Shown here: positions 18,798 through 31,952 of the stretch, piece by piece
Layout of the letters: every line of letters starts with the position of its first letter
How positions within the stretch are numbered: the first letter of the stretch is position 1
Source of the DNA: Phycisphaerales bacterium
GTDB taxonomy: Bacteria; Planctomycetota; Phycisphaerae; UBA1845; UTPLA1
Assembly: GCA_022360095.1 (NCBI GenBank)
Contig: JAKSDK010000801.1
Span: forward strand, 62,001-126,000
Reading direction: 5' to 3'
Length of the DNA: 64,000 bases
Notes under the pieces: generated by a model
The model's database searches: none
Seen by the model: only the letters and a program-made list of their open reading frames with translations
What the model was told of the DNA's origin: nothing
Made by a program: the position numbers and the translations under genes

Positions 18798-19976
18798 TTA
18801 TTTTTTCCTTGACGCGCCTGGAAGGTCTACGACCTTGATGATCCGCAGTCGGTTGTTGACGAACCGATCTGCAGGAACACCAGACTTGAATAGGTCGTAT
18901 CGGCTCGCACCCAAAATCTCACGCTGTTTGGCATCCGACTGGCGCTTCAGCCATTGGTCATAGGTCTCGTCTCGTGGCGGCGGCGCACCCTTGGGTACCG
19001 GGACATATGCACAGCGACACAGATTGTGAATCGGAATCTCCGGCATTTCCGGATCATTCACGCGGTACAGACCGGGAGAGAGCCCCTTGGAATGTCGCCT
19101 TGATGCCGCAGCGCACCGTAGACACACCCGCGCATCCAGCATCGTCGTGTATTTGATCACGTCGACGAGCGGCCCCGCGTATTCCATGAGGATCTCAAAA
19201 CTGTCGAAACTGATCACCTGCGCCTGGGTTCGGGCGATTGTCTCGATGTCGCGCTCGGCCTGCCGCAGTATGTGTCCGGCTTCGTCGACGATGTCGTCGG
19301 TTTCTCCTTCGAATCGGGCGATCTTCGCCAAGGCGTCTGAGACCCGATCAGTCGTGCGGTTGAGGGCACGGCCAGCGGCGCCGATGTAAGTCCGTGCCTC
19401 GTCCGTCTGCAGATAGGCCTCCATCTCATCGTCTCCGAGAATCCTGAAGAGCTCATCGAGGATTCCGGGAAGTTGGTCGGCAATCGACAGGCCGGTTGTC
19501 GTGCGGGGAACAAGTGGTTCATCCTCCGTCAGGGGTGGTAGTCCGGCAGTCTGTCTCAATCGTTTTAGGCGACGACGATCTGCCGTCTGTTGAATATGGT
19601 CTCTCAGTGCGACGACTCGGGATCCAGGGATGCTCCGCAGGAGCGCCCGTGCCTGCACAAGAATCCACCTGCGCGGCAGTTCGTCGAAGTCCCCCTTGAG
19701 GGAGCGCATAGAGGCCTCGACAGCGCTTCTGATTCGTCGTTCCAAGAGGAAGTTCAGTTGGTTGGCATTCCAGTCCTTCGGTTCGCCATCCAGATTCGCG
19801 AGGAATCTCATGATCGCGCGTCGTGCCTGGCGTATCGGCGGCGTCGCATCGCTGACGATCGCGTTTTCGACGCCCACGAGCGAATGCATGATCGAGATCC
19901 AGCGATCGTTCAGGCGGTCGCTGCGAGGCTGCTTGCGCGGCGGTCGCACTGGTTTTGCTTCAGTCAGGACAATCAT
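18798..19976 (-). CDS. Phage minor head protein (Mu F / SPP1 gp7 type)
   Basis: A 392-residue protein. Its C-terminal part carries the signature of this family: TMLDARVCLRCAAASRRHSK, then PIHNLCRCAYVPVP, i.e. a CxxC pair followed by H-x2-CRC. The preceding stretch (IVDEAGHILRQAERDIETIA RTQ) is helical. In Mu and SPP1 these proteins sit beside the portal and help head assembly or DNA delivery. In the usual order this gene directly follows portal; here the inserted NACHT gene (20125-23535, opposite strand) separates them. Start is ATG 19976, and the promoter of the NACHT gene lies right behind it. Confidence 0.85.
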   Translation of the reverse strand: MIVLTEAKPVRPPRKQPRSDRLNDRWISIMHSLVGVENAIVSDATPPIRQARRAIMRFLANLDGEPKDWNANQLNFLLERRIRSAVEASMRSLKGDFDELPRRWILVQARALLRSIPGSRVVALRDHIQQTADRRRLKRLRQTAGLPPLTEDEPLVPRTTTGLSIADQLPGILDELFRILGDDEMEAYLQTDEARTYIGAAGRALNRTTDRVSDALAKIARFEGETDDIVDEAGHILRQAERDIETIARTQAQVISFDSFEILMEYAGPLVDVIKYTTMLDARVCLRCAAASRRHSKGLSPGLYRVNDPEMPEIPIHNLCRCAYVPVPKGAPPPRDETYDQWLKRQSDAKQREILGASRYDLFKSGVPADRFVNNRLRIIKVVDLPGASRKK

Positions 19977-20031: not shown

Positions 20032-20124
20032 GTTGGCCGCCGAGGAGTAATCCGGGTCCAATTTCACGAAAATCTGATGACACAGAGCAAAAGAAGCCGG
20101 CACTAACGACATGGAGAATGCGTG

Positions 20125-23100
20125 ATGGCCAAACGACTAAGAAAACGCATCTTGGAAACAAAAAGTCTATACGACATCCTGCCACCAAGGACCTCGTCTA
20201 GTGGTCGTGAATTCGCTCGTATCGTAAACCTACTCTTGTTTCATGATGGACGCCGAAATGGAAAAACGGTCAGAATCTTCGATGACCGAGCCGGTGACTA
20301 CCATGGCCTTGACGCCTTTGAGAAGCAGCATAAGACGATCACTGTTGGCTATCAACACAAGTTCTATCCGTCTCCACTTAATAATAAAAATCGTGCGGAT
20401 ATCGAGACATCACTATCCAAGACCGTCGAAGGTCTAAAGAGGACCAAACAAACCATTAAAAAATGGATACTGGTAACGCCCCAGGATCCAGTTGAACCAT
20501 CGACGCGCAAGACCGGTGGAGATGTCACGTGGTTCGATAGTCTGCACAGCAAGCACAAACTGACCTTTGAAATTGAACACTGGGGACACACTCAACTCCA
20601 GGCCCTGATACTCGAAACGCCCTCGATCGGACTTAACTATTACCCGGAGCTTTTTTCCAGTGGCGTCACTCGCAAAAAGACAATCCAACAGCTTCGCCTT
20701 CAATACGACATCGCACTTAAGAAGGACCACGGAGAAATAGAGCTTGTCGGAATGTCTGTTTATAAGAAAGAGGCGGCCCGGACTATCCCGATCGAAAACA
20801 TCTACATTCCGCTCTCTGTCATCCCAAACAGCGCGGACGAGAACGACCCCAACATTCCCCGCCGAGATCCACTGGAGCTGCTTGTCCCGGGCACACACCA
20901 TGTCGTCCTGGGTGATCCTGGATCGGGCAAGACGACACTCCTTAGATTTCTGGCCCTTTTCGGTCAATCGGAGCCATTACAGCGACGCTATCGCGTGAAG
21001 GCGAAGGGCAAGCGTTTTCAATTTGAACCTGACGATCGGCTGCCAATCTTGGTCACGTTACGTCGTTATGCAGACGCAATCAAATCCAAAGAGAATTTAT
21101 CGCTTATCGATTATGTAAAGGAAAACACAGAGGCGGATTTTTCCATTACTGGAATATCGACGGAGTTCCTCGAATACTACTTGGAATCGGGAAAGACGAT
21201 CTTGTTACTTGACGGTCTCGATGAACTACCCAATCCAACATTCAAGAAGAAAATCCGCAATCGTATTCGCAACCTCGTGGAGGCCTATCCCGGAAACACA
21301 ACGGTTGTCAGTTCCAGAATCTACGGCTACGAGAGTGACTTTCAATTTGGCGAGGATGAATTCGAACATCACCGCCTAGCGAAATTGCGCCCAGAAGAGA
21401 TCGAGCAGTTTGTCCGGGATTGGTATGACGTGCACCTTGAACGGCCCAAGGACCGCAAGGACTATGTGGAAAGCCTCGTCGGTATCTTGGGTAATGAGGA
21501 AAATGAAGCAATTCGCGAACTGTCGCGGAATCCCCTGCTGCTGACGATTATCGTTCTTGTCCACCGAATCGATGCCGTCTTGCCGGACGAACGCCATGTT
21601 CTCTACGAAAAGTGTACGGAGACATTGCTCAACACCTGGCACACGTCGAAATTCCAAGAAATAGATAGACTTCACAGGGCCCAGGTCGATCGGCTGAACA
21701 TGGAACGCATGCAGGCCATGGCCTACTGGATGCACCACCAGATGGAGAAAACCAAGGCCGAACAACAGGCCGTGGTGGCTTACGGCCCGCTTCAGAAACA
21801 ACTCGCCGAACACATCAAGACTGAAAAACCACCCAATCCTGACTACGCCCCCGAGGACATCGCAACGGCCTTTATCGAGTTCATCCAGGATCGGGCAGGT
21901 CTTCTGGTAGAACTCGGCGACAGACAATTCAGTTTTGTCCACCTCACGTTCCAGGAATACCTTACAGCAAAACATATTCGCAGGTTATCAGAACTTAATG
22001 GTGTCAAAGATTTGTGGGCCACGGAGATTAGGGATCTCTGCTCTATTTCAAGATGGCGCGAGGTGATTCGCCTGCTGGTTGCGGGCTATGGGTCGGACAG
22101 CCAGGAGTTCCTCGTAGAAGAAATGCTGGCATGCGACCACACCAGCACAACGAATGCTCAACTGCTCGGTGGCTTGCTTTTGGATGGCGTCCCCGCCGCA
22201 AACGTGAGGAAACAACGTGTGCTCGAACACCTTCTGATGTCTTCTTCATGCACTCAAGGTGAAAGCGAACTTAGAAACACGCTGTCTGTTCTTCGTGCGT
22301 GCCGCGACAAACCTGATCTCGACAGGCAAGTGATCAAGGCAGCAGTAAAGTCACTTGCCGCTAACCTAGATGATGAGGGGCGAACGAGGCTTCGTCTGGT
22401 AGCGCTTTCTTGCAATATGAAGCTCACCGAGGTATGGGAAACTTGCGGCAAGGGTTTCAAACGAGAATCGGCTTTACTTTCGATGTTTGCAGGGAGAAGG
22501 CTGCGTACGGGCGAGGCCGAGATCCTGAATAGTGACGTGCAGCTTATGTGGGCTTACGCTGATGTTAGATTATTTAAGGGTCCGGCGGGGCGCGTCTACA
22601 CAAGCTTGTCCGCAAGTCTGGATGAAAGCATACACCCACAGACTAAGTGCGAACGATTGTTCGCTCTGCTTCTCTCAGCATTATCAGCAAATTTGACGCT
22701 TGGTCCACTCAACTACTACATTTCATTCCAACTCATTTCTTCTAAAGACACTTGTCTAATGACCTTTGGAAAAAACATGACTCGGGCTCTGGATCGGGCT
22801 CGGGCTCGGGCTCTGGATCGGGCTCGGGCTTTGTCTCTGGATCGGGCTCTGGATCGGGCTCGGGCTCTGGATCGGGCTCGGGCTCTGGATCGGGCTCTGG
22901 CTCTGGCTCTGGCTCGGGCTCTGGATCGGGCTCTGGATCGGGCCAAGGAACAGGCAGTCTGGCAGCAATTGTACTCTGATCCGACGATATCTGAGCAGCT
23001 CGTTCAGTTTCCGTGCGAAGTTTTCCGGTTGGAACCCCAGATGCTTTGGCGTGAAACGCTAAAAATCATCTTTCTGCCCACACACATCGGTCGAATCCGC

Positions 23101-23535
23101 ATAACGGACCCGCAATGGTGGATACAAACGAGAGACGCCTTTAAAACGGGAAAGACAACAATAGCAGACGTGAGCGCCGCAGCGGCTCAACTGATCTTCG
23201 ACAGTACCTTGTACGCGTTGAGCTACTATGACCCCACCAAGAAATCGTTAGGATACAACGACGAACAGATCGCGGAACACAAGCGAAGTTCGCCTAAACA
23301 TCGCGCGGTTTTCGATGAACTCGCAACGCTGACACGCGACAATGAGGACGCACCCTTGCGAATCGCCCACTGCATCCGCGACATTGCCTATGGAGACCGT
23401 TCGCGCACCGATGACCTCAAAGCAATGGTCGAGTCAAATGAGCCCGCCTATCGCAAGATCTTCGAGCGTTGCTATTGGAGGCCAACGAAAGACAAACGAA
23501 GCCGCGGCGTAGGGAAGAAAGTAAAAGATCAATAA
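20125..23535 (+). CDS. PD-(D/E)XK-NACHT STAND NTPase (bNACHT/Avs-like defence protein)
   Basis: About 1136 residues from ATG 20125 (GGAG eight bases upstream). Residues ~20-110 form a restriction-endonuclease-like domain: GREF with E29, DYHGLD with D58/D63, and a YQHKF strand with Q77 and K79. A NACHT domain follows: Walker [10 protein letters not shown] at ~263, Walker [12 protein letters not shown] at ~360, then the sensor-like [11 protein letters not shown] and the winged-helix region [31 protein letters not shown] is also typical. The C-terminus is helical with an LDRA tandem repeat (~886-940). Such proteins sense invaders through the C-terminus and activate the nuclease, by family knowledge. 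The gene lies antisense inside the phage structural operon and looks more A/T rich than its flanks. Confidence 0.9.
22781..22943 (+). repeat. In-frame minisatellite encoding LDRA repeats
   Basis: Tandem, imperfect copies of hexamers CGGGCT, CTGGAT and CTCTGG units (e.g. CTCTGGATCGGGCT) span ~160 bases of the NACHT gene. They encode alternating Arg-Ala, Leu-Asp-Arg-Ala and Ala-Leu steps, eight LDRA in all, predicted to form an amphipathic helix. Unit length is a multiple of three, so copy-number change would keep the frame. Confidence 0.9.
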
Positions 23536-23566: not shown

Positions 23567-25330
23567 TTACTGCCGCCCTTTCAATAAATCCACATCCGGC
23601 GCCGCCTCCGGATTCTCTGTCTGCTCATCCGCAATATTCTTCTCTTCCTCTTCGTGCTTCAGGTCTGCCCTGGTCCGCGCCGTCTTCTTCGAGATGATCC
23701 CGGCATCGGAGAGGATATCCAGTGACCGCGCGAGATCCAGTGGGTCGCGGATGATGATATTCGGGCCCTTGACCTCGATCTTCAGTTCATCCACCTCTTC
23801 CTCGCTCAGATCGCTCTCAATCCGTATCGTATCGCGGACGATCCGAGCCAACTGGCGCCCAAATCCCTTTTGGCGACAGAGTAGTGTGATGACCCCGCGG
23901 GCCTCGGCAACCTGCTGGCTGGCGAAGCTCGTAGCCGACGCATCGCCGGTGACCATGTAATCGGGGAGTCCCAGTCCGACGGCGATCAGGCGCAGGATCG
24001 CATGCCCGTCGCTCTCTGCATCCTTGGCTTGAACGTTCGGCGACTTAAAGTCGATCTCCGTGTCCATCGGAGCATTGATCGTCATTCCCAGATCGATGAG
24101 CCTCTTAGGTATCTCAACTGTGGGCCGGCTGTCGTCACCCGTCGGAGCCTCGTCCATCGAGTCGGCTTCGGCTTCGACAGCTGCCTCGATGTCACCGGGA
24201 ACACTGCTCTTCCGGTACACGACCATGGCGATGGCCGAGCGAACCTGGTTTAGCACTTGGCGGGCAGTCTGCCATGTGTCGTAGGCACGGATCGTTTTAC
24301 TGACGGTCAACAGCATGGGGACGCCGCGCTTACTGTTGCGACTGCAGTTGGTCTTGATGTGGCGAATACGCGAGTCCGGCAGGTTGTTGGCCTCCACGCG
24401 CACCCAATGACTCTGGCTTCCATCCTGCGTCTCGAACCAGTAGGCGAAAACGTGCTCTGGATCGTCCTTTAGAGTTTCGACACCAAATGTGAAAGATCGT
24501 TCTGCAATTTTTTCGGCGGAAAGCCCATGCTCTCCGGCGATCCTGTCGATCACATGTTTCTCGGGCTGCTTCAGGTTCTCCGGTTCCAGAAATCGATGGA
24601 TCGCCTGGCCTGGGCCGCGATCGCGAGCGCCTCCGTCGTCGCCTGCGTTTCGGATGCTGTAAAGACACTCTCCGTCACGGAGCGTCCGCGATACGAATTC
24701 TTCAGCCCGATCCTGAAAGTCGCTGCCCTCGCGCCGAGCCCAGGCACTCCAAGAATCCCGGCCCTTCGTCTGAACAATCTTGTTGTCGTGTGTGACGTTG
24801 ACCTCAACCTCCTGGCCGACGGAGTAGCAGACGAATATGTCGATTAGCCCGCGGTAGAGGGGATTAAACAGGTACAACCAGCGCGCGTCGTTCCTCCAGG
24901 CGTCCAGGTTCTGTTCACTCGGCTTTTGTGGAGGAAAGATGCGGCCCGTGATCGTCTCCCAGTCCGGGTCGTTCAGATCGATAGCGCCGTGTCGCCCGCT
25001 TGCGAAGTAATTCTGTCCCCATGATTCGGTGAGGAATGACTTTACTTCCGACTTAAGATTGCCCCGGTTCTCTGGCGCCCCTTGCAGTTTGTTCTCAAGT
25101 AGGAGCTCTGTTGCATTGGAGATGAACTGCTCTGCGATCGCCGTGCTCTTGCGATTGAGCGTTTGTGTGAGACGAAGCAACTGCAGGTCATTGAGGCCCC
25201 AGATTTTTGAGACCAACTGTTGCTTCCTTTTCGTCGCGTGCGGCCTCCTATTAGATCTCTTGGTCCCCGTTCCCTTCTTCTTGCGATTGGTCTTTCGAGC
25301 CGTCGGTGTTTTTGTTTTTGTCGTCTTCAT
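23567..25330 (-). CDS. Phage portal protein
   Basis: About 587 residues. The ATG at 25330 overlaps the large terminase stop by four bases (ATGA), which fixes the start; a longer frame from 25375 exists. A basic Lys/Arg-rich N-terminus precedes the portal core: YLFNPLYRGLIDIFVCYSVG, EFVSRTLRDGECLYSIRNAG, HIKTNCSRNSKRGVPMLL, ILRLIAVGLGLPDYMVTGDA. The last matches the typical GLPxxxLTG-like portal motif. It forms the dodecameric DNA gate at the capsid vertex, by family knowledge. It is directly downstream of TerL. Its stop lies 31 bases from the convergent stop of the NACHT gene. Confidence 0.9.
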   Translation of the reverse strand: MKTTKTKTPTARKTNRKKKGTGTKRSNRRPHATKRKQQLVSKIWGLNDLQLLRLTQTLNRKSTAIAEQFISNATELLLENKLQGAPENRGNLKSEVKSFLTESWGQNYFASGRHGAIDLNDPDWETITGRIFPPQKPSEQNLDAWRNDARWLYLFNPLYRGLIDIFVCYSVGQEVEVNVTHDNKIVQTKGRDSWSAWARREGSDFQDRAEEFVSRTLRDGECLYSIRNAGDDGGARDRGPGQAIHRFLEPENLKQPEKHVIDRIAGEHGLSAEKIAERSFTFGVETLKDDPEHVFAYWFETQDGSQSHWVRVEANNLPDSRIRHIKTNCSRNSKRGVPMLLTVSKTIRAYDTWQTARQVLNQVRSAIAMVVYRKSSVPGDIEAAVEAEADSMDEAPTGDDSRPTVEIPKRLIDLGMTINAPMDTEIDFKSPNVQAKDAESDGHAILRLIAVGLGLPDYMVTGDASATSFASQQVAEARGVITLLCRQKGFGRQLARIVRDTIRIESDLSEEEVDELKIEVKGPNIIIRDPLDLARSLDILSDAGIISKKTARTRADLKHEEEEKNIADEQTENPEAAPDVDLLKGRQ

Positions 25331-26802
25331 ACGGCTTTGATCCTCGCCTTGCCGGCTGTTTGGCGCCATCTCCATACTCTCTGGCCTTTGCGAGCCATCA
25401 TCACGGAGTCGGCCTCGTCCGGGCTGGCCTTACCTTTTTTGATCATCTGTTCCTTCGACATCAGCTTCAGCTGGCCTGTCGGCAGATGATAGTCCTTCCT
25501 CTGGTAGGCCAACTGCATGAGCAGGTCCTTGTCGTCGATCAGTTTGATTTTCTGAGTACGAATATCATTTGCAAGCAAGAAATATCCTTCCGACCGGGCG
25601 TTGAAGTATTTTCGCTCGTCCATCGGCTTGGCGTTCCCATTAAACTTCAGAACCGGCACTCTCTTTGCCCGAAGCTTGTCATGCACGCCTACTCCCAGGC
25701 CATCGGAGTCTACGGCGACGATGTCGGTGCGGTCATCACGCCACTCTTGGTAGGCAACTGCTGCCAATTTCTCGGTGTCATCGATGCGGTATTTCTTTAT
25801 TTTCGTGACGACGTTGCCGCGGATCCAGCATAAGACCGACTTGGATCGTCCCCCGCGCGCGACGTCAATCCCCAGCGCGGAAGGCTTGCCCCCCTTGCAG
25901 GGTGGCCGGCCCTCTGGGTCTTCGCATGCACGCTTGCATTCATGCAGTGTGAGCAGGAATTCGTCCGAAATGTCGGCGAACTCGCCTTTGACGTGCACCA
26001 TGTAGATCGGATCGGTCTTGTCTCCCCCGCAGTCGGCCAGTGTGTCCTCAATCCACTGTCGCGTGACCAGGCCGGGAAACGGTGGATCCTTGCCTTGGAC
26101 AATCCAGGGCAGCTTTTCCGAATCGATATGGATGGTCGACCAGAGATGCGCGATGTTGGGATCGTGGAACGCCCGATGGAACCACCCGTTCGTGACGGTC
26201 GGATTACCGATCGCCAGGATTCGGTCCTTCTCACCGCCGGTCACCGCCCGAATGCCATCATAAATGTCGTCAGAGATGCCGCTCGCCTCGTCGACGATGA
26301 CCAGAAGCCCACCTCGAGGGTGGCGCCCCATGAAGTTTTCCTTGCGCGTGGTACTGACGCCGGCGGCGAACCAGTCCTTCTCGATTTCCCATCTGTGCCG
26401 AAGCGGTCTGGGACCCAGTCCGCCTCGAACCTCAATGCCGCTCGGGAGCCTGAACGCCCTTTCGGACGCGACGCTCCACAGGTTGTGGATCTCGGCCCAG
26501 ATGACGTCCTTGACCTGTTTCATCGTTGGCGCCGTCGTGATAACCCCGCCCTTGGGGTGGGTCTGCATCCACCAATGGGCGGCAAGCGAGGCCATAGCGC
26601 TCTTTCCGATCGTGTTACCTGTTCGGACCGCCGTTCGCTTCTTTGTCGCCAGGGATTCCAGGATCGGGTACTGGTGCGGCAGCACATGGCGATCAAACCA
26701 GAGTTTGGCAAAGATCGCGGGATCGCGATGGGTCAGTTCAATGAGCTCGCGGTCATCATTCGAGAGTTGAGCGAGAGAGGGATGTCTGAGTGATCTGGAC
26801 AC
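25327..26802 (-). CDS. terL: Phage terminase large subunit
   Basis: A 491-residue protein with both halves of the packaging motor. ATPase: Walker A-like RTGNTIGKS (~59) and Walker B LLVIVDEASG (~167), plus an IGNPTVTNGWFH coupling-type segment. Nuclease (RNase H-like): GIDVARGG, IVAVDSDGLGVGVHDKL and SPDEADSVMMA supply the acidic residues. Length is as expected. It is followed by portal with a four-base overlap and preceded by a GroES-like gene 3 bases away. It cuts and pumps DNA into the prohead. Confidence 0.95.
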   Translation of the reverse strand: MSRSLRHPSLAQLSNDDRELIELTHRDPAIFAKLWFDRHVLPHQYPILESLATKKRTAVRTGNTIGKSAMASLAAHWWMQTHPKGGVITTAPTMKQVKDVIWAEIHNLWSVASERAFRLPSGIEVRGGLGPRPLRHRWEIEKDWFAAGVSTTRKENFMGRHPRGGLLVIVDEASGISDDIYDGIRAVTGGEKDRILAIGNPTVTNGWFHRAFHDPNIAHLWSTIHIDSEKLPWIVQGKDPPFPGLVTRQWIEDTLADCGGDKTDPIYMVHVKGEFADISDEFLLTLHECKRACEDPEGRPPCKGGKPSALGIDVARGGRSKSVLCWIRGNVVTKIKKYRIDDTEKLAAVAYQEWRDDRTDIVAVDSDGLGVGVHDKLRAKRVPVLKFNGNAKPMDERKYFNARSEGYFLLANDIRTQKIKLIDDKDLLMQLAYQRKDYHLPTGQLKLMSKEQMIKKGKASPDEADSVMMARKGQRVWRWRQTAGKARIKAV

Positions 26803-29290: not shown

Positions 29291-29371
29291 CCAGCACACT
29301 TTCCAATTGGGTATCGAGGAATTACAATATCTAACATGGGCGGAGACCAAGCGCAAGAAATCGGACCGGAG

Positions 29372-30604
29372 ATGACGAGAGATAAGGCACTGGAACTGCT
29401 GAACGGGTGGGAAGGGGGAGTCGAGGAGTGGAATGAATGGAGAAAAGAGTATCCCAAGGCGAGAATTCCGAGTCTTGAAAGAGGCAGCTTCAATAGCCCT
29501 TGCCACCTCGAGGGCGCCAACCTCAGCCACGCCAATCTCCGCGAAACCAACCTCGACGGCGCCAACCTCCGCTACGCCGATCTCCGCGAAGCCAACCTCA
29601 GCGAAGCCAACCTCAACGGCGCCGACCTCAGCGAAACCAACCTCCGCGGGGCCAACCTCCGCAGGGCCAACCTCAGCGGGGCCAACCTCAGCGGGGCCGA
29701 TCCCATATTCGCCACGCTGTCTGAAGAATTGGTCGGCCCCACCGAACTCAGGAAGGCAAAACTCATTGCTTTGGGCAGCTGGGGCCGTGCACTGGATATC
29801 TTTTGGACCCTCTATTCAGTTCCATATCTGTTGAATGAGACCATCACGCGAAACACACGCTTCGATCGACGCGCCCGCGACCCGTGGTCCGTCCTCCGTC
29901 GAAACTACACCGGCCCAAACATGATCTTCGTGCTGCTCTTTACGATCGCAGCATTCTTGCCAGTCATTGCGAAAGTGACGTTCTGGTCTGCTGTGAGTCG
30001 GTGGCAGGAGTCTGCGGCGCCCATGGCACTCGAAGCCATACAACGGACATCCGAGTTTCTCGCCAAAACACCTGATCCGGCTTGGTCACCGTGGGTCGAA
30101 AGGGCGCAAGAGCTGACAACAGGCGTCAATCGTGAACGAATCACACCGCGCCAGATTCGAGAGACAATCGAATTGCTTTCTTCAAGCACTGAGATAATCG
30201 AGGCATATCGAAAGCAGACGAATGCAAACGCTGAAAAGCTTGAAGAGCTGAAGCAAATTGAGAATCGGGTGACACAAGCTCAAGAAGCCGTCCGCATTCT
30301 AGGAGATTATGATTTGAAGGAACGTCGAGTGTTCTCGCTCGTCCTCGGAACAGACGACGGCTGGTATGTTGTGATCTTCTCTGCTGTCCTGCTTATCTAT
30401 AACGCGGCCCGCGCAATTCTGACGTATTTCGTCGGTCCACTACGGGATGATGAAGAGCGCGTGGGAGTCTCGCCGGCGTTGGGCGACTACCGGTGGTTAT
30501 GGAGGGTCCACCAGTTTACATCACCGGTACTGGCCATCTCTATTCTCGTCGGCATAGCACGGATTCTGAGCGGCCTTTGGTCGATAGTGCTGGTGCCAGG
30601 GTAA
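29372..30604 (+). CDS. Pentapeptide-repeat protein with membrane segments
   Basis: About 410 residues. It starts MTRDKALELLNGWEGGVEEW, a short N-terminal module shared with the TIR gene opposite (MNRDEAIMLLRSGPEGIQKW). This module, common before pentapeptide repeats, is why I prefer this ATG to 29336. About 13 pentapeptide units follow (A-N/D-L-x-x, to ~residue 120). After that come hydrophobic segments (NMIFVLLFTIAAFLPVIAKV; VVIFSAVLLIYNAARAILTY; SPVLAISILVGIARILSGLW) flanking a helical region. The protein may be a membrane effector gated by its repeat domain. It converges on the TIR gene with 40 bases between stops. Confidence 0.8.
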   Translation: MTRDKALELLNGWEGGVEEWNEWRKEYPKARIPSLERGSFNSPCHLEGANLSHANLRETNLDGANLRYADLREANLSEANLNGADLSETNLRGANLRRANLSGANLSGADPIFATLSEELVGPTELRKAKLIALGSWGRALDIFWTLYSVPYLLNETITRNTRFDRRARDPWSVLRRNYTGPNMIFVLLFTIAAFLPVIAKVTFWSAVSRWQESAAPMALEAIQRTSEFLAKTPDPAWSPWVERAQELTTGVNRERITPRQIRETIELLSSSTEIIEAYRKQTNANAEKLEELKQIENRVTQAQEAVRILGDYDLKERRVFSLVLGTDDGWYVVIFSAVLLIYNAARAILTYFVGPLRDDEERVGVSPALGDYRWLWRVHQFTSPVLAISILVGIARILSGLWSIVLVPG

Positions 30605-30644: not shown

Positions 30645-31811
30645 TCATTCAACTTGATTGTCCGCCAACCCATAATTGACTTTCAGCCCATCGACGAGTT
30701 TCTTGTACACCGACTCGAATTCTTCTGTCTGCCACGCCGAGAAGTCGAGGACGTTCTTTTCAAACACCGGTTCCCAATGAACGTCGTTAGTCTTGGACTT
30801 CCATTCATCGTCAAGAGCAACAGGACAAAGCACGTCGCGTCCTTCGTCCAGTTCTTTCTGTCTGGCCGCTTTCAGTTCATGCTTAACCCAGTCGCTATTC
30901 ACCGACGACTTTGAGAGCACGAGCAGTACTATGTCGTTGAGTCGGATGGCTCGATCAACTTGTTTCTGGATATCGCCCGCATTCAAGTCGTGTCGATCAA
31001 GCCAGGTTGGCGCGCCTTCGCCTTCTAGTCGTTCGTGAATCTTGTCAACAAACTTTGAATCCTCGTGTGAATAGGAGATGAACACACCACCGATGAAGAT
31101 CGGACCTCGATTACGGGCATTGATAACCTCGTATTGCAGGTTGGTGAACTCGTCTGCGGAGAGATCGGGATCATAAGCCTTGGCTGCGATGATCTGCCAA
31201 GACTGAAACCCGCAGCCACGCAAGAAAACGTCTGGTATTCTACCTTTTGATTTGGCCAAGGTTTCGACGCCGACCGAGCACGGACCATAAAACGTGACCA
31301 GACGAAGCCCACTTGCCTCGGACAAATCTAAGGCACTTAGAATGGTGCCATTCATTCTGGATCTTGTGAAGTTTGCGCCACTGAGTTGACTGTCAACGAA
31401 CGTTGTTCCAGAAAGAAAACTAAGACTGAAGTTGACTTTCGTGAGATTAGCATTGCCAAAGTAAGCTACGCCGAGATGGGAGTTACCGACATTGGCGCCA
31501 GTAAGGTTTGCCTGAAAGAAGTTGGCAGAGGCAAAGTGGGCATCGCGAAGGTTGGCAGTGTTAAGGTTGGCGCTTCGTAAATCGGCTTGGGCGAAACTAG
31601 CCCCTCTCAAATTGGCAGCACTAAGATCGGCGCCCCTGAGATTGGCACAGGGAAGATTGGCCTGCCTAAGGTCTACGGCGTGAAGATCAGCGCGGCTGAG
31701 ATCGGCACCGCGGAGGCTGGGAATGTTTTCTCCCTCATTGCGTCGGCGGTTCCATTTCTGGATACCCTCCGGCCCGCTGCGCAGTAGCATTATCGCCTCG
31801 TCACGGTTCAT
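30645..31811 (-). CDS. Pentapeptide-repeat protein with C-terminal TIR domain
   Basis: About 388 residues from ATG 31811 (a longer frame reaches 31859). Residues ~5-175 have the shared N-terminal module and pentapeptide repeats (ADLSRADLHAVDLRQANLPC and on). The C-terminal ~140 residues are a TIR domain: VFISYSHEDSKFVDKIHERL, the acidic loop WLDRHDLNAGDIQKQVDRAI, VLLVLSKSSVNSDWVKHELK, VLCPVALDDEWK. Bacterial TIR domains often cleave NAD+ or make signal nucleotides in defence systems, by family knowledge; the glutamate expected in the WVKHEL helix is present. It is probably defence cargo at the mobile-element boundary. Confidence 0.88.
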   Translation of the reverse strand: MNRDEAIMLLRSGPEGIQKWNRRRNEGENIPSLRGADLSRADLHAVDLRQANLPCANLRGADLSAANLRGASFAQADLRSANLNTANLRDAHFASANFFQANLTGANVGNSHLGVAYFGNANLTKVNFSLSFLSGTTFVDSQLSGANFTRSRMNGTILSALDLSEASGLRLVTFYGPCSVGVETLAKSKGRIPDVFLRGCGFQSWQIIAAKAYDPDLSADEFTNLQYEVINARNRGPIFIGGVFISYSHEDSKFVDKIHERLEGEGAPTWLDRHDLNAGDIQKQVDRAIRLNDIVLLVLSKSSVNSDWVKHELKAARQKELDEGRDVLCPVALDDEWKSKTNDVHWEPVFEKNVLDFSAWQTEEFESVYKKLVDGLKVNYGLADNQVE

Positions 31812-31952
31812 GAATGAAGGATTGTACATGAACTCGACGGGCAGACTTACCCAGACCATGCGCGGGACCTATACGGGACCGATTTTTAATTTAGCAGGGT
31901 GAATTTGGGGATAAAATCGCCGTTTTTGGGCCATTCACTAAGGGTGAAGTGC

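What the first reader, a model, noticed from the sequence alone, without database searches (positions are those of the whole stretch)
22781..22943. Copy-number-variable LDRA minisatellite in the NACHT sensor half
Hexamer-based tandem DNA repeats encode eight LDRA steps in frame. Slippage in units of three bases would change repeat length without frameshift, so the sensing part could vary quickly. All three forward frames stay open here (reading SGSGSG in one shadow frame), which shows how regular the DNA is. A hypervariable STAND sensor arm would be an unusual diversity mechanism.
Basis: partly seen in the sequence, partly recalled or inferred. Interest (0 to 1): 0.8.

Follow-up and report, generated by a model that had tools for sequence, protein, structure and literature searches.

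The report
Slippage-prone repeat in bacterial NACHT sensor
A prophage-borne bacterial relative of animal NLR immune receptors carries, in its variable sensor arm, a freshly expanded run of 27 six-base DNA repeats that codes for a helical rod, and unrelated runs of the same kind recur in the same part of other bacterial NACHT proteins with different units and lengths, which suggests a built-in way for these sensors to change length.

Summary
Window 22782-22943 is a hexanucleotide array (27 units: 14 CGGGCT, 8 CTGGAT, 3 CTGGCT, 2 variants) coding 54 residues with exactly eight LDRA steps, in frame in an 1137-aa NACHT gene; all six frames are open across it. Codon use is frozen (CGG 15/15 Arg, GCT 17/18 Ala; rest of gene 8/84 and 9/69), so the DNA expanded recently. 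It is the only array of its kind in the 8.5-Mb genome. Of four full-length relatives found in other phyla, one (KSB1) has a different hexamer array at the same alignment position, again the only one in its genome; three have none. A scan of 44 NACHT genes found eight strong hexamer-period arrays, all C-terminal to the NACHT module, against 0 of 129 other ORFs; cyanobacterial arrays lie before the NCH2 domain. In all arrays tested the coding frame is the best helix former of the three forward frames. So 'hypervariable sensor arm' is supported between lineages (unit, length, presence). Strain-level copy-number change, which the title asserts, is untested: no second genome of this genus was available. 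Best reading: a slippage-prone coding minisatellite acting as a helical spacer.

The parts
20122..23535 (+). NACHT STAND gene, 1137 aa (GTG at 20122, alternative ATG at 20125), antisense to and inside a prophage head-gene module
   Evidence: only one copy in the genome
20122..20865 (+). N-terminal presumed effector domain (residues 1-248); conserved D59...G62-L63-D64...G76-Y77-Q78-x-K80 resembles a PD-(D/E)xK/Mrr-like nuclease, but K80 is Thr in one of five relatives; no Pfam or PDB match
   Evidence: nuclease reading is inference
20902..21426 (+). NACHT NTPase domain (residues 261-435), P-loop GDPGSGKT, Walker B region ILLLDGLDE
   Evidence: PF05729 E=8.6e-9, 35.9 bits against cut-off 26.7
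21931..21969 (+). HD2-type motif [13 protein letters not shown] (residues 604-616) closing the NACHT module
   Evidence: (NLRC4_HD2 weak hits in 2 of 5 members)
21970..22430 (+). alpha-helical (solenoid-like) start of the sensor arm, residues about 617-770, modelled with pLDDT mostly 60-90
22783..22944 (+). hexanucleotide array, 27 units, residues 888-941, [54 protein letters not shown]
23077..23454 (+). conserved C-terminal region after the array (residues 986-1111; WRE...[12 protein letters not shown] motifs); not recognised as NCH2
23567..25375 (-). phage portal protein (prophage context)
   Evidence: PF05136 E=5e-26, phrog_21 E=1e-29
25327..26802 (-). terminase large subunit (prophage context)
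   Evidence: phrog_2 E=1.8e-28
18798..19976 (-). head morphogenesis protein on the other side of the NACHT gene
   Evidence: phrog_241 E=1.4e-19

Best explanation
The feature is a young coding minisatellite of hexanucleotide units in the post-NACHT arm of a bacterial NLR-like (NACHT STAND) protein. Each unit adds two residues from a small helix-forming set (L/R then A/D), so the array codes for a charged, Ala/Leu-rich alpha-helical rod between the helical solenoid that follows the NACHT module and a conserved C-terminal domain. Unit gain, loss and replacement by replication slippage or unequal recombination never break the frame and change arm length by about 3 Angstrom and 200 degrees per unit (ideal helix geometry), altering how far and at what angle the C-terminal part sits. 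The same slot has gained, lost and replaced such arrays repeatedly in separate NACHT lineages, so it tolerates and probably exploits length change. Shown: the array, its recent DNA-level expansion, the slot's variability between lineages, and the consistent helix-coding frame. Inferred: helix in the real protein, slippage as the mutational process, and a spacer/geometry role in sensing, by analogy with the 12-bp TAEL repeats of type I restriction HsdS.
For: Codon freezing: within the array CGG 15/15 Arg, GCT 17/18 Ala, GAT 8/8 Asp, CTG 11/12 Leu, against 8/84, 9/69, 30/67 and 30/127 elsewhere in the gene; 0 of 20,000 codon resamplings are as uniform. Unique in genome: all pattern matches (14/14 and 12/12) fall in it. 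KSB1 relative L031 (52% overall identity) has another hexamer array (ALELGRALELGRDLELGLERARARELGLGL..., Ala codon GCG, not GCT) at the same alignment position, also the only such array in its 7.2-Mb genome (7/7 matches); L032-L034 lack one. Recurrence: 8 of 44 NACHT genes against 0 of 129 other ORFs have hexamer-period arrays with z>10 (Fisher p=1e-5), all after the HD2 motif. Cyanobacterial plasmid NACHTs carry arrays (AIANAYAKAI..., LDSALTSAL..., RDLARDLAS..., LDFDFDFD...) between a conserved arm helix and NCH2 (PF22727); detected runs about 38 to 157 residues, anchor-to-anchor distance 66 to 221 residues. In 13 of 13 arrays tested the coding frame has the best helix propensity of the three forward frames. 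AlphaFold models the tract as two long helices. HsdS precedent: 12-bp repeat coding TAEL, 2 against 3 copies, changes domain spacing by 0.34 nm and 36 degrees (PMC3874165).
Against: No within-species comparison exists here, so slippage in real time is unproven. The structure models are of low confidence over the tract (pLDDT about 36-58). Three of five full-length family members have no array and are apparently intact, so an array is not needed for the fold or function. The window genome is a draft in 1918 contigs, so its copy number could be mis-assembled. Part of the NACHT sample was reached by DNA searches with array-bearing genes, which inflates the 8/44 figure.
Confidence: 0.6

Rival explanations
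1. Tolerated passenger: a hexamer array arose by chance slippage in a fast-evolving, loosely constrained linker of the sensor arm. It persists because any in-frame helix-forming insert is harmless there; its length has no effect on sensing.
For: The flanking region is the least conserved part of the protein (alignment A1); relatives without arrays are apparently intact (L032-L034); the array's own sequence is not conserved between relatives.
Against: Recurrence in several NACHT lineages at the same architectural place and none in 129 neighbouring ORFs; consistent choice of the helix-forming frame, though that also follows from mere tolerance of helices and exclusion of stops.
Confidence: 0.27
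2. True contingency locus: the array is kept hypermutable by selection and copy number switches the receptor between recognition states within a population, as in phase-variable genes.
For: Homogeneous DNA repeats that can slip without frameshift; array birth and turnover at the same slot across lineages.
Against: No strain-level variation could be observed; interrupted hexamer arrays usually slip less than homopolymers or perfect tetramer runs (general knowledge); in-frame change would tune, not switch off, the protein.
Confidence: 0.1
3. Assembly artefact: collapsed or expanded repeat in a draft genome.
For: The source genome is in 1918 contigs; the array (162 bp) is about as long as a short read.
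Against: The array is interrupted and aperiodic enough to be anchored; the same kind of tract occurs in plasmid records of cultured cyanobacteria (L212, L217, L223, L225, L226, L234) and in another MAG (L031). Only the exact copy number is at risk.
Confidence: 0.03

Closest known systems
Bacterial NACHT/NLR-related defence proteins (bNACHT; NACHT STANDs)
   Same: Central NACHT NTPase, separate N-terminal presumed effector and variable C-terminal presumed sensor; here carried as cargo on a prophage
   Different: The passages read (PMC10907252; abstract of PMC12169576) do not mention hexamer-coded dipeptide arrays; defence function of this protein is untested
Type I restriction HsdS TAEL repeats (EcoR124I/EcoR124II)
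   Same: Short in-frame DNA repeat (12 bp, 4 residues) coding an alpha-helical spacer; unit number changes inter-domain distance and rotation, hence specificity (PMC3874165)
   Different: HsdS binds DNA with two TRDs; this is a NACHT protein, the array is far longer (27 hexamers) and the effect on specificity is only inferred. Works-like, not a member.
Fungal NLRs with high internal conservation (HET-D/HET-E WD40 arrays)
   Same: NACHT receptor whose sensor half is a highly homogeneous tandem repeat that varies in unit number by concerted evolution (PMC12222747)
   Different: Fungal units are WD40 repeats that fold into propellers; here units are two residues and are predicted to make a helix
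DGR-diversified NACHT/STAND antigen sensors of multicellular bacteria
   Same: Proposed fast diversification of the sensor part of bacterial STAND NTPases (PMC10907252)
   Different: That uses a retroelement and point hypermutation of a C-type lectin; here the proposed source is repeat unit gain and loss

Membership tests
NACHT STAND (PF05729) | NACHT domain above curated cut-off with P-loop and Walker B | tested here: met
   E=8.6e-9, 35.9 bits against 26.7; GDPGSGKT and ILLLDGLDE; all five relatives match
NACHT STAND (PF05729) | C-terminal helical NOD module (HD2-type motif F-x-H-L-T-F-Q-E-Y-L) | tested here: met
   invariant in five relatives; profile touches NLRP3 at the same motif (weak E=0.03) and NLRC4_HD2 in two members
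Bacterial NACHT anti-phage defence system | demonstrated protection from phage | not testable with these tools
   no close characterised homologue; PADLOC gives only P-loop matches
Cyanobacterial NACHT with NCH2 C-terminus | NCH2 domain (PF22727) after the array | tested here: not met
   no NCH2 match in the window protein at E<=1, while L212 and L225 match at 6e-17 and 2e-44
Polymorphic coding minisatellite (VNTR) | tandem DNA repeat with homogeneous units in frame | tested here: met
Polymorphic coding minisatellite (VNTR) | copy number differs between strains of one species | not testable with these tools
   no other genome of the genus held; between-lineage variation only
HsdS TAEL spacer | type I restriction specificity subunit with two target recognition domains | tested here: not met
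   domain content is NACHT, no restriction-subunit match
Fungal HNWD-type NLR with WD40 arrays | repeat units are WD40 propeller blades | tested here: not met
   unit is a dipeptide; no WD40 match
DGR target | adjacent reverse transcriptase and template repeat | not tested
   neighbouring genes examined are phage structural genes; no dedicated RT search was run

The most novel reading that the evidence does not exclude
Bacterial NLR-like NACHT receptors have a 'length slot' between the NACHT arm and the C-terminal domain in which hexanucleotide coding arrays are born, slip and are replaced again and again, giving sensor-arm diversity by repeat-unit change, a mechanism distinct from retroelement hypermutation and from the large-unit arrays of fungal NLRs.
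Probability: 0.35. Interest if true: 0.82.

Novelty: new variant of a known kind. Interest (0 to 1): 0.62.

Why it matters
How prokaryotic NLR-like sensors diversify their recognition half is an open question. If short coding repeats let the sensor arm change length without loss of frame, it would be a simple, testable diversification route in bacteria, parallel to WD40 arrays of fungal NLRs and to TAEL spacing in restriction enzymes. The cyanobacterial carriers found here are named strains with plasmid records, so copy-number variation and its effect can be measured directly.

Tried and rejected
A degenerate LDRA-type pattern scan of 392 genomes of the phylum and of viral contigs gave mostly GC-rich low-complexity hits in other genes; none of the loci examined from those scans was a NACHT gene. 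Viral-contig searches for the NACHT protein and for the portal found no relatives. The family is rare: no further full-length member in 82 genomes of the KSB1 phylum or 296 of the Algicola order. AlphaFold of the full protein is poor (mean pLDDT 49) and of the C-terminal half moderate (58); Foldseek gives only generic solenoids with no E below 0.05, not used. The N-terminal domain has no PDB or meaningful Pfam match. Two apparent hits (L013, L023) are runs of N and were discarded. Idea of a second gene in the SGSGSG or reverse frames: rejected, those frames are at most 107 codons. Strain-level comparison was sought among PLSDB strain sets (Leptolyngbya boryana, Synechocystis 6803), but those NACHTs have no array.

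Full report
Observation. The array at 22782-22943 is real. Read in the frame of the ORF 20122-23535 it consists of 27 hexamers: [54 protein letters not shown]. All six frames are open across it. TRF also reports 12- and 18-base periods, which are higher orders of the same hexamer.

It is a recent DNA event. The residues use nearly one codon each inside the array (CGG 15/15, GCT 17/18, GAT 8/8, CTG 11/12), while outside it the gene uses CGG for 8 of 84 Arg and GCT for 9 of 69 Ala. None of 20,000 resamplings from the gene's own codons is as uniform. Selection on the protein alone is not expected to produce this; repeat expansion is. In the whole 8.5-Mb genome all matches to a degenerate pattern of the array lie here.

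The gene. It encodes 1137 residues with one NACHT domain (PF05729, residues 261-435), an HD2-type motif at 604-616, and a C-terminal half that diverges most between residues about 700 and 985, then becomes conserved again. The N-terminal 248 residues are conserved but have no Pfam or PDB match; a D...GLD...Q-x-K pattern suggests a PD-(D/E)xK nuclease, which is inference, and the lysine is threonine in L033. The gene lies antisense between the portal (23567-25375) and a head morphogenesis gene (18798-19976) of a prophage, so it looks like prophage cargo. The relative L034 also sits beside a DUF6362 gene, a domain I know from phage genomes (own knowledge).

Relatives. Only four full-length relatives were found in one genome per species of 84,980 species: a KSB1 MAG (L031), an Algicola MAG (L032), an uncultured Schlesneria (L033) and a Magnetococcales MAG (L034), 38-52% identical overall. 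L031 has a hexamer array at the same alignment position, but with other units (LE, LG, RA, RD, RE; Ala codon GCG), again codon-uniform (0 of 20,000 resamplings) and again the only array of its kind in its genome (7 of 7 matches). L032-L034 have ordinary sequence there. The chance that the only such array of a 7.2-Mb genome falls in the 3.3-kb orthologue is about 5 in 10,000, so the coincidence needs either descent with complete unit turnover or a slot prone to such arrays.

Other NACHT proteins. Cyanobacterial plasmid NACHTs, first reached by NACHT-domain similarity, carry the same kind of tract: Calothrix 336/3 (AIANANAYAKAIANANAYAKAI...), Calothrix PCC 7716, and then Nostoc N6, Nostoc C057, Allocoleopsis PCC 7113 and Acaryochloris MBIC10699. 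The arrays start just after a conserved arm helix (GKRA/IRAFYL) and end before the NCH2 domain. Relatives with conserved flanks have long, degenerate or no arrays; detected runs in the cyanobacterial carriers are about 38 to 157 residues, and the anchor-to-anchor distance ranges from 66 to 221. Of the first six plasmid NACHTs examined, chosen without regard to arrays, two had strong ones (L212, L217). Across 44 NACHT genes eight had arrays at z>10, and 0 of 129 other ORFs in the same loci (Fisher p=1e-5); four of the eight (L223, L225, L226, L234) were fetched through DNA searches with array-bearing genes, and the window itself was given, so the proportion is inflated; the zero in neighbouring ORFs and the shared location do not depend on that.

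Protein level. In all 13 arrays tested, including nine from NACHT genes, the reading frame used is the one with the best intrinsic helix propensity of the three forward frames; the others hold stops or are rich in Gly, Pro or Ser. The cyanobacterial cases share ancestry, and the non-NACHT ones were found by a residue pattern, so this is support rather than proof. AlphaFold models the window tract as two long helices with low confidence.

Mechanism. The best-supported reading is a helical spacer coded by a slippage-prone minisatellite. The nearest mechanistic precedent is HsdS of EcoR124I and EcoR124II, where a 12-bp repeat coding TAEL, present two or three times, moves the two specificity domains by 0.34 nm and 36 degrees and changes the recognised gap (PMC3874165). 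The nearest biological parallel is the fungal NACHT receptors HET-D and HET-E, whose WD40 repeats are kept nearly identical and vary in number (PMC12222747). Retroelement hypermutation of bacterial NACHT sensors has been proposed (PMC10907252), so sensor diversification is an existing theme; the short-repeat route was not found in the open-access papers searched, which does not cover subscription journals.

What is not shown. Strain-level copy-number change, rate of slippage, helix in the real protein, effect on sensing, and anti-phage function. The main rival, a harmless passenger in a tolerant linker, explains most of the data except the concentration of such arrays in NACHT genes. Scores reflect a confirmed and unexpectedly recurrent feature with an unproven functional claim.

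Noticed in passing
window 20122-23535 between 18798-19976 and 23567-25375: A NACHT STAND gene sits antisense inside the head module of a prophage, between portal and head morphogenesis genes, which suggests prophage-encoded defence cargo; a Magnetococcales relative (L034) is next to a DUF6362 gene.
   Followed up: partly
L104:2892-3590, L142:4520-5368, L163:5156-5908, L239, L242 (IMG/VR): A family of phage proteins of roughly 190-290 residues, without Pfam match, carries long LD/LA/RA hexamer arrays in a fixed slot; relatives L240 and L241 have ordinary sequence in the same slot. Same repeat alphabet, unrelated protein.
   Followed up: partly
L235:3652-4719, L236, L237:2873-3796 (Streptomyces plasmids): Hypothetical proteins with long degenerate L/R-A/D dipeptide tracts and a shared C-terminal motif (ADLT...RW, PGSG...IV).
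   Followed up: no
window 30645-31859 (-): Protein with N-terminal pentapeptide repeats and a C-terminal TIR domain (TIR_2 E=4.5e-24, ThsB_TIR 5e-8), next to a second pentapeptide-repeat gene at 29336-30604 with a 15/45-base tandem array.
   Followed up: no
L246 (Synechocystis B12) and L227 (Nostoc MS1): NACHT genes broken into several ORFs, while related copies are intact; the C-terminal piece of L227 still shows an array remnant.
   Followed up: no
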